A stretch of 64,000 nucleotides of DNA from Pseudofrankia inefficax (GTDB taxonomy: Bacteria; Actinomycetota; Actinomycetes; Frankiales; Frankiaceae): NCBI RefSeq assembly GCF_000166135.1, contig NC_014666.1, positions 7,936,001 to 8,000,000 on the forward strand, given 5' to 3'. Within the stretch, counting starts at the first letter, position 1; each line of letters opens with the position of its first letter. Below are positions 4,722-54,490 of this stretch, piece by piece. The translations under genes and the position numbers were made by a program. Under the pieces are notes generated by a model. The model had not been told where the DNA came from and searched no databases. It worked only from the letters and a program-made list of their open reading frames with translations.

Positions 4722-5035
4722 GCCGTCGCCGTGTCAAGACGGGACAGGCCGGTCCAGGCGAGCGACCGCATCGCCGTCAGCCGCTCGCGCAGCACCGCCG
4801 CACCCGCCGCGGTGATCCGATACGGCCGGCGCCGCTGCTCCCCTGCCATCGCCTGGACGAACCCGCGTTCCTCCAGCCGAGACAGCGCCCCGTATAAGGT
4901 GCCGGGCCCGAGCGTCACCCCAGCCTGCTCCGCGATGTCCGCCGTCATCGCGTACCCGTGCTTCGGCCCGCCGGCCAGACTGGTCAGGATCAACACCGCC
5001 GGATCCGCCCAGCCCACCTCATCCTTACGCCGCAT
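4718..5035 (-). CDS. PadR-family transcriptional regulator
   Basis: A 105-aa winged-helix protein. The segment around residues 12-75 contains LTSLAGGPKHGYAM, a recognition helix near GVTLGPGTLYGALSRLEE and the wing at RRRPYRIT, which are PadR hallmarks. PadR proteins are usually dimeric repressors released by ligands or phenolic/antibiotic stress. Start ATG has GGAGGTCGT upstream. It is first in a two-gene operon with the membrane protein at 3813-4721 and probably autoregulates it. An imperfect ACGT-rich element lies between 5045 and 5075, but I could not define an operator. Confidence 0.9.
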   Translation of the reverse strand: MRRKDEVGWADPAVLILTSLAGGPKHGYAMTADIAEQAGVTLGPGTLYGALSRLEERGFVQAMAGEQRRRPYRITAAGAAVLRERLTAMRSLAWTGLSRLDTATA

Positions 5036-5283
5036 ACGACCTCCGTCTCACGTAGTACGCGAAACGTAGGACAGGTCGACGCGGCCGTCAAGGACCGACC
5101 CGGGCCGGCCGGGCGAGCGCTCGCGGGTCGAACGGCCAGCCGCGCCGCCTCCCGACCGGGCGATCGTCCCGGTGTCTGCCGCCGTTTCGCCCACATCGAG
5201 GGGGCCTGCCCCACGCGTCTGAGCGCTTTGCTGTTCGGCGTGTCGGAAGTCCGATAGTTCCTGGTAGGCGAATAATCCGCGCC

Positions 5284-5892
5284 ATGGCTCATCCGCGACG
5301 GTTCGCCCTCGCCGCCGTGTTCGTGCTCGCGCTGGCGGGCTGCACCCTGCCGGGATCGACTGCCTCCGGGTCGACCAGTAGCCCGACCAGTGCCGACTCG
5401 GCCCAGCCCGGACCGCTGGTCGACTCGACGGCGACCTCAACCGTCTACCCGGCGCACTGTCAGGCGAGGGACAACAACGAAGAGCCCGACCCGACCTGCA
5501 CACCCGGCGCGCTGAACCCCGCGGTCACCCAGGCCACGATCGGCTCAACGATCTGCAAGTCCGGCTGGACGGCCACGATCCGCCCGCCCACGTCCTACAC
5601 CAACACGATCAAACGTGAGGCGATCGCCGCATACGGCGACTACGCCGGCACCGCGATGGGCAACTACGAACTCGACCACCTGATCTCCCTGGAGATCGGT
5701 GGATCCCCGACCGCGGTCGCGAACCTGTGGCCCGAGAAGGGAGAACACAACGACAAGGACCCCGTCGAGAACGCCGCCAAGCGCGCCGTCTGCTCCGGCC
5801 AGATGAGCCTTGCTGACGTCCAACAGCAGATCGCCACCAACTGGGTCGCCCTCGGCCACGAACTCGGCGTCACGGGCATCCCCGCCACCTGA
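5284..5892 (+). CDS. Secreted lipoprotein with an HNH-like nuclease domain
   Basis: A 202-aa protein with a lipoprotein signal peptide: basic start, hydrophobic core and lipobox LAGC with Cys20 as lipidation site. A Ser/Thr-rich spacer follows. The C-terminal part carries YELDHLISLEIGG (Asp131-His132), then NLWPE and a KDPVEN segment near 158-163. This DH...N...N layout resembles the beta-beta-alpha metal (HNH-like) nuclease fold seen in a family of small exported proteins. Four cysteines in the mature part could form disulfides. I infer an outer-face nuclease or nuclease-derived protein; activity is not shown. No operon partner is evident. Confidence 0.7.
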   Translation: MAHPRRFALAAVFVLALAGCTLPGSTASGSTSSPTSADSAQPGPLVDSTATSTVYPAHCQARDNNEEPDPTCTPGALNPAVTQATIGSTICKSGWTATIRPPTSYTNTIKREAIAAYGDYAGTAMGNYELDHLISLEIGGSPTAVANLWPEKGEHNDKDPVENAAKRAVCSGQMSLADVQQQIATNWVALGHELGVTGIPAT

Positions 5893-6610
5893 GTCGAGGA
5901 CCTTCGGACAGCGCACGGCGCCTGTCGGGCGGTTGCAGCCGGGAGTTGGCTGGCGCTCCGGCCGCCGAGCCAACCCGCGGGGACGATTCGCTCGGACTAC
6001 TGTAAAAGGGCCGGCAGTCTCCATCCCCCCCCGTAGGTGGCTGCCTGTCTCGGATTTTCGGGGCCTCGACGGTCCGTGTCCGCGGCCAACCCGACAGCGC
6101 GGGCGCGACGCCGACCGACCCTGGCAGCGTCGATCAACCGTCTGATGGCAGACTCGGCGCGCAGCGGAGTTCCCAGAGCACAGGGACTTGTCTCAGCGGA
6201 CCCCCTCGTCTGGGAACTCCGCTGCCCGTTCTGGCTAATACTCGGTCCTTCGCCGAGCGTTGACCCGGCTCCCGTCGGAAGCGTCGCGTCGGCCTGCCGC
6301 CATCTCGACCTCGCCAGGGCGGTCTCCTGTCCCGGTCTCTGTTCTGTATTGATCCGGGACGAACTCCGGGGGCGGGTTCGCAGACTGGGTGACGATGCAA
6401 GGCCGGTGGACCGACCTGGTCGTGGCCTTGCCCGAGGTGGCCGTGGACAACCGGACTACCGGGCTGGATAACGTCGCCATGATCGTGGGGCGAGTCGGAA
6501 GATGGGGACGATATGCGGCTGGCATAGGATTTCTGGTGTCCCCTGGACCGTCTCTTGGCAAGGCGGCTGCCGACACCCAACGTCGGCCAGTGGTGGGAGG
6601 ATCAGGCGCT
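5893..6610. other. Intergenic region upstream of the TIR gene
   Basis: No gene is supported. The frame of the downstream TIR gene stays open back to 6389, but its added residues have no recognisable domain and no ribosome-binding site. The notable structure is the perfect 17-bp inverted repeat at 6161-6225. Confidence 0.5.
6161..6225. repeat. Perfect 17-bp inverted repeat
   Basis: GCAGCGGAGTTCCCAGA (6161-6177) recurs as its exact reverse complement at 6209-6225, separated by 31 bases. It lies about 390 bases upstream of the TIR gene. Possible roles are a terminator for the lipoprotein gene, a miniature transposon-like remnant or a regulatory palindrome. No target duplication was identified. 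Confidence 0.7.
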
Positions 6611-7339
6611 GTGTCCGACAGGGGCGCCGCAGGCAGGCGGCCAGCGCCAGAGTGGGATTTTTTCATCTCCTACACGGGCGCGGACCTGGCGTGGGCCGAG
6701 TGGGTCGCCTGGCATTTGGAGGATGCCGGTTACCGGGTGCTGGTTCAAGCGTGGGACTTCGTGCCTGGGTCTAACTGGTCGGTGCGCATGCAGGAGGGCG
6801 TCACCAAGGCGGAACGCACCATAGTGCTGCTCTCCGCCGCCTACCTGGATTCGGTGTACGGCCAGGCCGAGTGGCTGGCCGTACAGGCTGCCGACCCCTT
6901 GGGGTTCACCCGTAGGCTGCTGCCCATCAGGGTGGAAGAGTGTCCGCGTCCCGTCCTGCTTGGACAGATCGTCTCGTTCGACCTGTTCGGCCAGTCACCG
7001 GAGGCAACCCGCCTTCATCTGCTCGGCAATATCGCCGCCGCGCTCGCGGGACGCGCGAAGCCGGCGGTCGCACCGACCTTCCCTCGCCACAGACGACCGA
7101 GCCTGCTATCAGGCAAGCCGGACATCGCCCGCTCGACATCTCCAGCCCCCGCCGCCCAGCTGGCCCCCGTGCGCCCAGCGGAGCCATCCCGGCGGCGACC
7201 GGTGGACTCCGGCGTCAGACCGGATCGCGCGGCGCAGGACCCGACGACCCGACACCCTGACCACGGGCGCAGCGACAGCTACGCCCAGACCGCCGGACAT
7301 GTGGATACGGAACCGGCCGGCGCGCGGCCACCTCGATGA
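6611..7339 (+). CDS. TIR-domain protein (N-terminal half of a split TIR-WD40 gene?)
   Basis: A 242-aa protein. Residues about 14-146 form a TIR domain: WDFFISYTGAD (beta-A), YRVLVQAWDFVPG, a SAAYLDS strand followed by YGQAEW with a Glu (87) where TIR NADases carry the catalytic Glu, and the terminal VSFDLFG strand. A Pro/Arg-rich linker follows. The GTG at 6611 was chosen because GGGAGG precedes it and the domain begins at once. The next gene (7361-8116, membrane helix plus WD40 repeats) is in the same frame, separated only by TGA at 7337-7339 and seven codons. TIR domains fused to sensor repeats occur in bacterial immune proteins; a defence role here is inference. Confidence 0.85.
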   Translation: MSDRGAAGRRPAPEWDFFISYTGADLAWAEWVAWHLEDAGYRVLVQAWDFVPGSNWSVRMQEGVTKAERTIVLLSAAYLDSVYGQAEWLAVQAADPLGFTRRLLPIRVEECPRPVLLGQIVSFDLFGQSPEATRLHLLGNIAAALAGRAKPAVAPTFPRHRRPSLLSGKPDIARSTSPAPAAQLAPVRPAEPSRRRPVDSGVRPDRAAQDPTTRHPDHGRSDSYAQTAGHVDTEPAGARPPR

Positions 7340-7360
7340 CCGAGACTCGCGTGGCCGCGT

Positions 7361-8116
7361 ATGGCGGCAACCTTGCCTGCCGCCTCCGGCGACAAGCGCC
7401 GCTGGGCCAGCCTGCTGCGCCACCGTCGGATCCTCGCCCCGCTTACGGTCGTCATGGCCGCTGCTATCACCGCCGCCGCGCTGATCGCCACAGTTCCGGG
7501 CCACCGACGGGAAGGCGAAGCCTCCCAGCACACCACGACCCTGTCACCGCCTCCTGCTGTGGACTGGTCCAGCACCACCCTGCCGCCCGGCCCCACCAGC
7601 GCGGTGAGCTCGGTGGCGTTCTCCCCGGACGGACACACCCTCGCCGCCGGCACCTACGAGGGATTGAAATTGTGGGACGTCACCCAACCGGCCCACCCCA
7701 AACCCATCGGGAATCCGAACAACTCGCTCCACCCGCTGCTCTCGGTCGCGTTCTCCCCGAACAGGCACACCCTGGCCGCAGCCGTAGGTCCCGGCCCCAC
7801 CGGCTCCGACACCTACGGCTCGGTGTGGCTGTGGAACATCAGCGACCCCGCCCACCCCACCCGGCTTGACACACCGACCGGCGCCGATCCGCTGGTGACC
7901 TCGGTCGCGTTCTCTCCGGACGGACACACCCTGGCCGCCAGCGCCGGCGGCCAGGTCGGCGGGGTCTGGCTGTGGAACGTCGTCAACCCGACCCACCCCG
8001 TGCAATTAAAGGCACTGCCCACCAGCCTGCCCTACTCGCTAGCGTTCTCCCCGGACGGGCGCACCCTGGCCGTCGGCTGCAGCGACGACACAACGCGTCT
8101 GTGGACAGCGGATTAA
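7361..8116 (+). CDS. Membrane-anchored WD40-repeat protein
   Basis: A 251-aa protein with a basic N-terminus, one transmembrane helix (about 24-45), a Pro/Thr spacer and four WD40 units, each with the AFSPDGHTLA type core and a closing LW(D/N). Four repeats cannot close a standard seven-blade propeller, so the protein may be truncated or pair with another. It shares its frame with the TIR gene upstream. Its ATG lacks a clear ribosome-binding site, which fits the idea that it was once the C-terminal half of a TIR-TM-WD40 protein. WD40 domains mediate binding; no enzyme activity is expected. Confidence 0.8.
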   Translation: MAATLPAASGDKRRWASLLRHRRILAPLTVVMAAAITAAALIATVPGHRREGEASQHTTTLSPPPAVDWSSTTLPPGPTSAVSSVAFSPDGHTLAAGTYEGLKLWDVTQPAHPKPIGNPNNSLHPLLSVAFSPNRHTLAAAVGPGPTGSDTYGSVWLWNISDPAHPTRLDTPTGADPLVTSVAFSPDGHTLAASAGGQVGGVWLWNVVNPTHPVQLKALPTSLPYSLAFSPDGRTLAVGCSDDTTRLWTAD

Positions 8117-8901
8117 AGAACCCCGCGGGCCTCGCACGACGGCGTTAACAAACCGAAATGCTCGTCCTCGACACCGTCCACACGATCGACGACTTCTACC
8201 TCGGCCTGGTACGACTCCCCCGCCCCTGACACGACCGAAAGTGCCGAACCTCTGTGACGTAACGCTGCCACTCCTTGACCCGCTGCCGCTCCCAGATTCA
8301 CGAACTCGGCGGCGGCGGCGGGAGGCTATCCACCTCGCGGAGTCGGTCCCCCGAGAAATGCACCCGGAAAGGTGAGCCACCGGCCCACGACGGGCCATAA
8401 ATGGCACAGCCAGATAGCGCCGACAGAACGGCGCTATCCCGCCTGAACTCCTGTCGACGGCTGGGCCGCGTGCGACTCGATCCCCAGCAGGAGCAGCGCC
8501 TGCTCGACCACTCCTCCCGGAGAACTCGCGCCGGGAGTCTGATCCCCGGTGCCGGCCGGAGGGTCGCGGAGATCCGGGATTTCCTGCTGCATTCGGCGAG
8601 TGTACGCGCGCCAACGGCACGCCCGCAGTACAGCGACTTCGGGTGGACGGCACATGGGCGCAGTGCAGATTATTCACGACCAAGCCGGCATTCGATCCGC
8701 GACGTCTTCGGCGCCTCCCCCGGCTGACAACGCCGTCCATTTGGTCCATTTGAAGGGGCCGCCGCTCGGCGCCGACCCCTCCGCCCATGGTCGGAAGCGA
8801 TAAGGAGGAAACAAGCGCGAAGGGGAGCGGCGGGGTGGGCGATCACGGCGCGGCCATGACATGGCGTCTGACCATGTCGCTCCCGCGCGGGCGCGACATG
8901 C
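8117..8901. other. Gene-poor stretch after the WD40 gene
   Basis: No confident gene. A 23-codon frame at 8158-8229 reads MLVLDTVHTIDDFYLGLV and ends in LPRP. It is protein-like but too short to assign, and may be a remnant. Other open frames look like compositional shadows. Confidence 0.45.
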
Positions 8902-9621
8902 TCATGGCGCCCCCGCGGACGCCGCGCGCATCACCTGGGCGAGGACGGCCGCGTCCCCGCCTGGCAGACGCGCCACGGCGTCCCGGACCCAGGTCACGCC
9001 CGCGAGCAGGTATCCCTCAGGCCGGAAGTAGGCCTGACCATCGGCGGCGAGCGTCTCCAGGATGGGCCAGACCGCCGAGTCGCGGCAGAAGGGGCCAAAC
9101 GGAATCGGTCGGACGGCCCAGTCGAGCACCCGGTAGCCGCGACGGCCCGCCTCCGAGAGCACTCCTAGCGGGTCGGATATCGATGAGATCATCAGCATCG
9201 CCAGATCGAACGGACAGCCGAGGATCCGGCGAGTGACGGCCGCTCCCCGCGCCCCGCCGTGCAGCCCCGGCCCGTCGGGGCGCCGCGCCTCCGCCGGCAG
9301 GTAGGGCGGGTTGGCGACGACGCAGCGCTCCTTCGCACGGGCGGCGTATTCGAAGAAGTCACCGAACTCGACGGAGTAGTTCGCGGGACCCTTCCGATCG
9401 GCCAGCCGGCGAGCCGCCCGGTACGCACCTGGGTCGCGTTCGTAGCCGCGGACCGGAACGCTCGACTCGGACCGGTCAATCGCCTCCAGCAGCGGGATAC
9501 CCGTGCCCACACCCAGCTCCGTCACCCCGTCCGCGAGGTAACGGCGCAAATCCCCGCGGCACAGAAGACGCTCAACGCACCACGCGTAGAACCCTGACTC
9601 CACCGGGTCGTAGAAGACCAT
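8902..9621 (-). CDS. HemK-like SAM-dependent methyltransferase (copy 1)
   Basis: A 239-aa class I methyltransferase. It starts with MVFYDPVESGFYAWC, has the SAM-binding loop ELGVGTGIP around residues 36-44, an acidic residue after the second strand (RGYERD) and the VANPPYLP motif near residue 105. NPPY is typical of enzymes that methylate amide or exocyclic amino groups (HemK/PrmC, N6-adenine). A paralogue at 19051-19767 has the same layout. The substrate is unknown; length is shorter than PrmC and it lacks the PrmC N-terminal helical domain. It is read toward the WD40 gene and has no operon partner. Confidence 0.8.
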   Translation of the reverse strand: MVFYDPVESGFYAWCVERLLCRGDLRRYLADGVTELGVGTGIPLLEAIDRSESSVPVRGYERDPGAYRAARRLADRKGPANYSVEFGDFFEYAARAKERCVVANPPYLPAEARRPDGPGLHGGARGAAVTRRILGCPFDLAMLMISSISDPLGVLSEAGRRGYRVLDWAVRPIPFGPFCRDSAVWPILETLAADGQAYFRPEGYLLAGVTWVRDAVARLPGGDAAVLAQVMRAASAGAP

Positions 9622-9756
9622 GCCGCTCCAGCCGTCGCCCGGCCCCGAGCACGGTCTTCCCCGGGGGTAAACGCATTGGGTGCGTGCTCAAGACCGCGGG
9701 CAGCGCACCGTCACGCGCCCACCGTCCCGTACCCGCATGACCCGCCGCCAAGCTCT

Positions 9757-9979
9757 TCCACGCGACCCGCTCGTCCGGCAGCTGCTCGGTGATCGCCGCG
9801 TCGAACTCACGGTCCTGGCCACCCACCTTGACGTGCCAGTGCGTGTGGGTCGCGTCGAGCTGCTCGATCGACTCCACCCCGGTCATGAAGTGCGGAAACG
9901 ACTCGAACTGGGTCCACTGGTTGTAGGCGGTACGCACCGGCACGCTTACGTCGATCGACTCCGCGACTGTGGTCGCCGT
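9757..9979 (-). pseudogene. Truncated SRPBCC-family gene with a lost start codon
   Basis: The translation is almost identical to the N-terminal half of the intact SRPBCC protein at 45087-45545 (AYNQWTQFESFPHFM, DREFDAAITEQLPDERVAWKS). The position of the intact gene's ATG reads ACG here (9979-9977) while the GAGGAGAG ribosome-binding site is kept. Homology ends at about 9757, just after the WKS codons; beyond that the frame continues into unrelated sequence. About 60 bases upstream are also shared with the intact copy. It is a partial duplicate that has probably lost function. Confidence 0.8.
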
Positions 9980-10126
9980 CAGAACTCTCCTCTTGTCGCT
10001 GATCCGGACCACCACGGCGTTCCAACGGCCGGCCATCGACAACACCCGAAGCGCCGGATCGCCGTGACGACAGATGAATCGCCCACACCCCCGGGAAACC
10101 TAGGCCGCACCCACCTGATTGTCCGG

Positions 10127-54046: not shown

Positions 54047-54490
54047 GTGGCGAACTCGCTTTCCGAGTCGGTGATTCCGATCGAGGTGCTCCTCGTCCAG
54101 GACGACCCCGGCGACGTGTTCATGGCCCAGGCCGCGTTCGACGACCACAAGGTCATGAACAACCTGCACGTGGTCGCCGACCGCGTGGCGGCGCTGAGCT
54201 TCCTGCGCGGCCAGGGCGAGTACCGCGACAGGCCGCGGCCGGATCTGATCCTGCTCGATCTGAACCTGGGAGACAGTCGACAGCTCCTGGCCGAGGTGCG
54301 GTCCGACGACGAGCTGCGCCACCTCCCGGTCGTGGGCCTGACCTCCTCCAAAGCGGAACAGGAAGCGCTCCGCGACGACCTGCACGCCGACGCCTACATG
54401 ACCAAGCCGGTCGACTTCGAACGGTTCGTCGACGTCGTCTGCCGTCTCGACGCGTTCTTCCTCAGCGTCGTCCGCCTTCCCCGCCGCTGA
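54047..54490 (+). CDS. Stand-alone response regulator receiver protein
   Basis: A 147-aa single CheY-like receiver. Acidic pocket QDD at 18-20, phospho-acceptor Asp71 in LLDLNLGD, Thr99/Ser100 in VGLTSSKAE and Lys120 in TKPVD. No output domain, as in Rcp1-type regulators that work with phytochrome or other hybrid kinases. GTG with AAGGAGCGG upstream. No kinase gene is next to it. Confidence 0.88.
   Translation: MANSLSESVIPIEVLLVQDDPGDVFMAQAAFDDHKVMNNLHVVADRVAALSFLRGQGEYRDRPRPDLILLDLNLGDSRQLLAEVRSDDELRHLPVVGLTSSKAEQEALRDDLHADAYMTKPVDFERFVDVVCRLDAFFLSVVRLPRR

What the first reader, a model, noticed from the sequence alone, without database searches (positions are those of the whole stretch)
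6611..8116. TIR and membrane WD40 halves in one frame, split by a single TGA
The TIR gene (6611-7339) and the TM-WD40 gene (7361-8116) share a frame with only TGA 7337-7339 plus seven codons between them. The WD40 half lacks a clear ribosome-binding site. TIR-(TM)-WD40 single proteins are a plausible ancestral layout. So either a nonsense mutation has split an immunity-type effector, or the stop is functional (readthrough, or two proteins from one mRNA). The WD40 part has only four blades, which also hints at decay or partner assembly.
Basis: partly seen in the sequence, partly recalled or inferred. Interest (0 to 1): 0.62.

Follow-up and report, generated by a model that had tools for sequence, protein, structure and literature searches.

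The report
Broken copy of bacterial TIR-WD40 receptor
In this Frankia-type soil bacterium, one of a large family of presumed immune proteins that join a TIR enzyme domain to a WD40 sensor in one chain has been cut in two by small DNA changes in its floppy linker; it looks like ordinary gene decay in one copy among many intact ones.

Summary
A TIR_2 ORF (GTG 6611 to TGA 7337-7339) and a TM-WD40 ORF (7361-8116) share a frame. Only the first has a Shine-Dalgarno site. About 30 relatives in Frankiaceae, 13 of them in this genome, carry TIR and WD40 in one uninterrupted ORF, most often with seven blades. The closest relative, from the same genus (G006), is an intact 708-residue TIR-linker-TM-WD40(7) protein. 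No relative found has a stop at this place or a conserved two-gene layout. Six alignment schemes agree that the TGA lies in a segment (7325-7395) out of phase with that relative, between indels of about -10 and +1 nt. So the break is a frame-disturbed linker, not just one nonsense change. The WD40 half has four eroded blades, modelled as part of a seven-blade ring; its start lacks a ribosome-binding site and lies 21 nt past the stop; a response-regulator gene fragment follows it. Best reading: a disrupted copy of a lineage-expanded TIR-WD40 family. The TIR half probably still folds and could be expressed alone. Readthrough, or assembly of two four-blade halves, is not excluded, but little favours either.

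The parts
6595..6600 (+). Shine-Dalgarno-like GGGAGG, 10 nt before GTG 6611
   Evidence: sequence; duplex with anti-SD -10.2 kcal/mol
6611..7339 (+). TIR half, 242 aa, ends at TGA 7337-7339
6659..7006 (+). TIR_2 domain (residues 17-132)
   Evidence: Pfam PF13676 E 3.9e-34; AF2 model pLDDT 83 with PDB TIR matches up to Z 18
6869..6871 (+). GAG codon of Glu87, the candidate NADase catalytic Glu (YLDSVYGQAEW motif)
   Evidence: nearly invariant in 30 aligned sequences; role from knowledge of TIR NADases
7127..7324 (+). low-complexity linker, in phase with the intact relative
7325..7395 (+). frame-disturbed segment, out of phase with the intact relative, between indels of about -10 and +1 nt; contains the TGA and ATG 7361
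   Evidence: six scoring schemes agree on the phase at the TGA; shuffle test 2/2000
7337..7339 (+). TGA that ends the TIR half
7361..8116 (+). TM-WD40 half, 251 aa, same frame, no Shine-Dalgarno site
7430..7495 (+). predicted single transmembrane helix (ILAPLTVVMAAAITAAALIATV)
   Evidence: sequence reading; region 58% identical to that of the intact relative
7604..7681 (+). WD40 blade 1
7736..7840 (+). WD40 blade 2, eroded, with an insertion
7895..7981 (+). WD40 blade 3
8033..8110 (+). WD40 blade 4
8167..8226 (+). orphan 3' end of a response-regulator gene directly downstream
   Evidence: 19/19 residues identical to a REC protein in the same genus

Best explanation
This is a disrupted copy of a lineage-expanded family of one-chain TIR-linker-(TM)-WD40 proteins. 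Intact members probably work as receptor-effectors: the WD40 propeller binds a ligand and clusters the TIR domains, which then cleave NAD+ or make a nucleotide signal (inferred). In this copy the disordered linker acquired about -10 and +1 nt indels, which put about 71 nt out of phase, and a TGA now ends translation after the TIR half. The order of the events is unknown. The TIR half keeps its start site and its conserved residues and may still be made as a short soluble protein without its anchor and sensor. The WD40 half is probably translated poorly or not at all and is decaying. Shown: the split, the intact relatives, the phase shift, the missing RBS and the blade erosion. Inferred: loss of the original function, and the biochemical role.
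For: An intact 708-residue relative in the same genus has TIR, TM and 7 blades in one ORF (66% identity in the TIR half). About 30 further loci have TIR and WD40 fused, 13 of them in this genome; the window is the only same-frame split. Under six scoring schemes the stop segment is out of phase with the relative; it aligns there better than all but 2 of 2000 shuffles. No SD before 7361. Blade scores are 34, 19+2, 34 and 36 bits against 49-61 in the relative. The four-blade model superposes on part of 7-bladed propellers (WDR5, 154 residues, 1.5 A). dN/dS against the relative is about 0.33 in TIR, 0.54 in TM and 0.68 in WD40 (from dN and dS). The window's TIR has more unique changes than the relative's (21 v 7 with outgroup L041). 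Debris of a response-regulator gene follows at 8167. Two other family members are also frame-broken (L087, L049).
Against: The WD40 frame is open for 251 codons with coding-like GC3 of 0.87, so decay is recent or some constraint remains. The comparison rests on one close relative, which is not at the same genomic place. Four- and five-blade fused members exist (L073, L119, L088), so a low blade number alone does not prove decay. The relative-rate result varies with the outgroup. Some diverged but unbroken members score lower per blade than this one.
Confidence: 0.78

Rival explanations
1. A true two-gene system: the TIR protein and a separate membrane-anchored 4-blade WD40 protein are both made from one mRNA by termination-reinitiation, and the WD40 half assembles in pairs.
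For: Same strand, 21-nt gap and open frame. TM dN/dS below 1. The 4-blade model matches 6r5y, an 8-bladed propeller made of two 4-bladed fragments (Z 22.4).
Against: No SD before 7361. Reinitiation at about 20 nt is almost abolished in tested pairs (PMC10666635). The better placed ATG 7336 leads out of frame. No relative found has this layout. Blades are eroded.
Confidence: 0.1
2. The TGA is read through at low level, giving a full-length TIR-TM-WD40 protein (programmed or tolerated recoding).
For: The frame is the same on both sides. The base after the TGA is C, a context known to be leaky (own knowledge). A hairpin holds the TGA in its apical loop (z -2.7).
Against: The stop is not conserved in any relative found. 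The RNA downstream folds as expected by chance (z -0.2), and 156 of 5815 sampled stretches of the window fold as well as the hairpin. The hairpin's left arm is absent in the relative. The WD40 half is itself eroded.
Confidence: 0.06
3. Sequencing or assembly error created the stop.
For: A single wrong base would be enough to make a stop.
Against: The genome is one contig rated 100% complete. The sequence around the stop has no long homopolymer. The phase shift relative to the relative involves several nucleotides, not one homopolymer slip.
Confidence: 0.04
4. The split freed a working stand-alone TIR protein (TIR-only effector), and only the WD40 part is a remnant. This is compatible with the best explanation.
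For: The TIR half keeps its SD, start, fold and all invariant columns, Glu87 included. Short TIR frames occur in this genome (143 and 159 codons).
Against: No measure of selection after the split is possible with one relative. The TIR branch is faster than that of the intact copy with most outgroups.
Confidence: 0.25

Closest known systems
Intact TIR-linker-TM-WD40(7) protein of the same genus (G006:C1, locus L040 292-2418 -, 708 aa)
   Same: Same domain order, 66% identity in the TIR half, 58% in the TM region, conserved start and linker motifs (RPDRAAQDP, PDHGR)
   Different: One ORF, seven near-identical blades, no stop; non-syntenic place
Frankiaceae TIR-WD40 single-chain family (about 30 loci found here)
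   Same: TIR_2 followed by a WD40 array; candidate catalytic Glu kept
   Different: Uninterrupted; most have about 7 blades and many lack a TM
Bacterial TIR NADases (SPARTA TIR-APAZ, AbTir)
   Same: Predicted fold (Z up to 17.8 to SPARTA entries, 16.3 to AbTir 7uxu) and the conserved Glu
   Different: 12-18% identity; different partner domains; activity untested
6r5y, an 8-bladed propeller formed by two 4-bladed WD40-type fragments
   Same: The four-blade arc superposes (Z 22.4, 1.6 A, 38% identity)
   Different: There the assembly is solved; here assembly is unknown and the blades are irregular

Membership tests
TIR_2 domain family (PF13676) | profile match above the curated cut-off and TIR fold | tested here: met
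   118 bits against 28; AF2 model with TIR matches up to Z 18
Enzymatic TIR NADase | catalytic Glu in the alpha-C region | tested here: met
   Glu87 is 90% or more conserved in 30 aligned sequences
Enzymatic TIR NADase | NAD+ cleavage | not testable with these tools
   needs an enzyme assay
WD40 repeat proteins (PF00400) | repeated WD40 motif above cut-off | tested here: met
   70 bits against 27, four blades
WD40 repeat proteins (PF00400) | closed propeller (usually 7 blades) | tested here: inconclusive
   four blades; the model fits part of 7-bladed rings and also a two-fragment 8-bladed ring; closure by pairing not tested
Single-chain TIR-(TM)-WD40 family | TIR and WD40 in one uninterrupted ORF | tested here: not met
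   TGA 7337-7339; about 30 relatives are uninterrupted
Translationally coupled gene pair | overlap or very short gap, or RBS, before the second gene | tested here: not met
   21 nt gap, -3.0 kcal/mol; distance effect from PMC10666635
Programmed stop-codon readthrough | in-frame stop conserved among homologues | tested here: not met
   no homologue found carries it
Programmed stop-codon readthrough | stimulatory RNA structure | tested here: inconclusive
   downstream z -0.2; hairpin around the stop z -2.7, not exceptional in the window

The most novel reading that the evidence does not exclude
A one-chain TIR receptor has been converted into two working proteins: a soluble TIR enzyme, and a membrane-anchored four-blade WD40 fragment that closes by pairing into an eight-bladed ring, made by reinitiation or leaky readthrough.
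Probability: 0.07. Interest if true: 0.5.

Novelty: new member of a known kind. Interest (0 to 1): 0.17.

Why it matters
As decay it matters little: one copy among many intact ones. It does point to an expanded family of TIR-WD40 (some TIR-TM-WD40) proteins in Frankiaceae for which the searched open-access library gave no study. The intact members are plausible receptor-effectors with one cytoplasmic TIR and, in the TM version, an outward WD40 propeller (topology inferred from positively charged residues before the helix).

Tried and rejected
NCBIfam gave no family. PADLOC gave only weak TIR-level matches. Rfam gave none in 5000-10000. No sigma-70-like promoter or relevant terminator at 5900-8700. 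Synteny with the intact relative was tested and absent. The idea that ATG 7336 (ATGA overlap) starts the WD40 protein was rejected: its frame gives a 177-aa ORF without WD40. A conserved two-gene arrangement was looked for in the fetched loci and not found. RNA structure downstream of the stop as a readthrough signal: no excess. The open-access library gave no paper describing TIR-WD40 fusions in Frankia; it lacks most subscription journals.

Full report
What is there. The window is G000:C1:7936001-8000000 of a single-contig genome of 8,815,781 bases, the length given for Pseudofrankia (Frankia) inefficax EuI1c in PMC9680954. On the + strand a TIR ORF starts at GTG 6611 behind GGGAGG and stops at TGA 7337-7339. 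Seven codons later, in the same frame, ATG 7361 starts a 251-residue ORF with one predicted transmembrane helix and four WD40 blades, ending at 8116. The start of the second ORF has no ribosome-binding site: anti-SD pairing is -3.0 kcal/mol against -10.2 for the first. An ATG overlapping the stop (7336) opens another frame without WD40.

What the relatives look like. A search of 97 related genomes found the closest TIR at G006:C1:2042886-2043602, same genus, 66% identity, in an open frame of 713 codons. Its 708-aa ORF is TIR, proline-rich linker, the same TM segment (58% identity) and seven near-identical WD40 blades. In the home genome 30 places match TIR_2, and 13 of the loci checked have WD40 blades downstream in the same ORF; most of these arrays are clear, but a few (for example L108, one hit) are weak. 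Across all fetched loci about 30 distinct loci are fused. The window's locus is the only one with the WD40 in a separate, same-frame ORF. Two others, L087 (G006) and L049 (G021), are frame-broken inside the WD40 array. So the fused chain is the normal state, and breaks recur in this expanded family.

How it broke. DNA alignment with the intact relative (71% identity) runs in phase from 6611 to 7324. It is then out of phase from 7325 to about 7395, and in phase again from 7397 through the TM. Under all six scoring schemes the TGA sits in the shifted segment. The fit of the stop-bearing 40 nt to the relative in the shifted phase is matched by 2 of 2000 shuffles. The net change is about -9 nt, made of about -10 and +1. 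The stop is therefore not simply a mutated sense codon of an otherwise aligned frame. Substitutions also distinguish the segment from the relative, so a point change may have contributed; the order cannot be resolved with one relative. There is no synteny with the relative, so this is a homologue, not a proven orthologue.

Is either half still under selection? Pairwise with the relative, dN and dS are 0.131/0.402 in TIR, 0.416/0.511 in the tail, 0.288/0.534 in the TM region and 0.444/0.652 in WD40. The WD40 figure is not strictly orthologous because blades evolve in concert. The TIR half keeps all invariant columns, and Glu87, in an alignment of 30 sequences. Its AF2 model (pLDDT 83) matches SPARTA TIR domains (best Z 17.8) and the NADase AbTir (7uxu, Z 16.3). 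Its branch is faster than that of the intact copy with several outgroups (21 v 7 with L041) but not all. Its blades score 34, 19+2, 34 and 36 bits against 49-61 in the relative. The four-blade part is modelled with good confidence (pLDDT 87) and superposes on part of seven-bladed rings, and on 6r5y, an eight-bladed ring built of two four-bladed fragments. So pairing is physically possible but not shown.

Expression of the second half. Reinitiation efficiency was reported to be almost abolished at about 20 nt in six tested gene pairs (PMC10666635); here the gap is 21 nt without an SD. RNA downstream of the stop folds no better than shuffles (z -0.2). A hairpin places the TGA in its loop (z -2.7), but 156 of 5815 sampled stretches of the window fold as well, and the relative lacks its left arm. 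Directly downstream, 8167-8226 encodes the last 19 residues of a response regulator, identical to those of an intact gene elsewhere in the genus, so the 3' flank is gene debris.

Verdict. The most likely story is ordinary decay of one copy of a lineage-expanded TIR-WD40 family (0.78), possibly leaving a stand-alone TIR protein (0.25, compatible with the first). Readthrough, a true two-gene system or a sequencing error are each at or below about 0.1. The function of the family (receptor-effector that consumes NAD+ on ligand binding) is inferred from its domains.

Noticed in passing
window 8167-8226 (+): Orphan 3' end of a response-regulator gene (19/19 residues identical to an intact REC protein in G003; 94% DNA identity over 65 nt in G002); a distant intact relative lies at 54077-54487 of the window.
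   Followed up: partly
G006:C1:5103119-5103673 (L087) and G021:C26:93512-94090 (L049): Two other TIR-WD40 genes whose WD40 array continues in another frame after the first blade, so breaks recur in this family (assembly errors not excluded).
   Followed up: partly
home genome, 30 TIR_2 places: Large expansion of TIR domains, 13 joined to WD40 arrays of varied blade number; some open frames reach 1300-2000 codons.
   Followed up: partly
window 7322-7360: Hairpin (9-bp perfect arms 7323-7331 / 7351-7359 plus an inner stem) with the TGA in its loop; left arm not present in the intact relative. Unexplained, perhaps chance.
   Followed up: partly
L089, + strand, 1229-codon frame starting near 2804: A large ORF within a few kb of the intact TIR-TM-WD40 gene of G006 carries a TM segment 44% identical to that of the window protein.
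   Followed up: no
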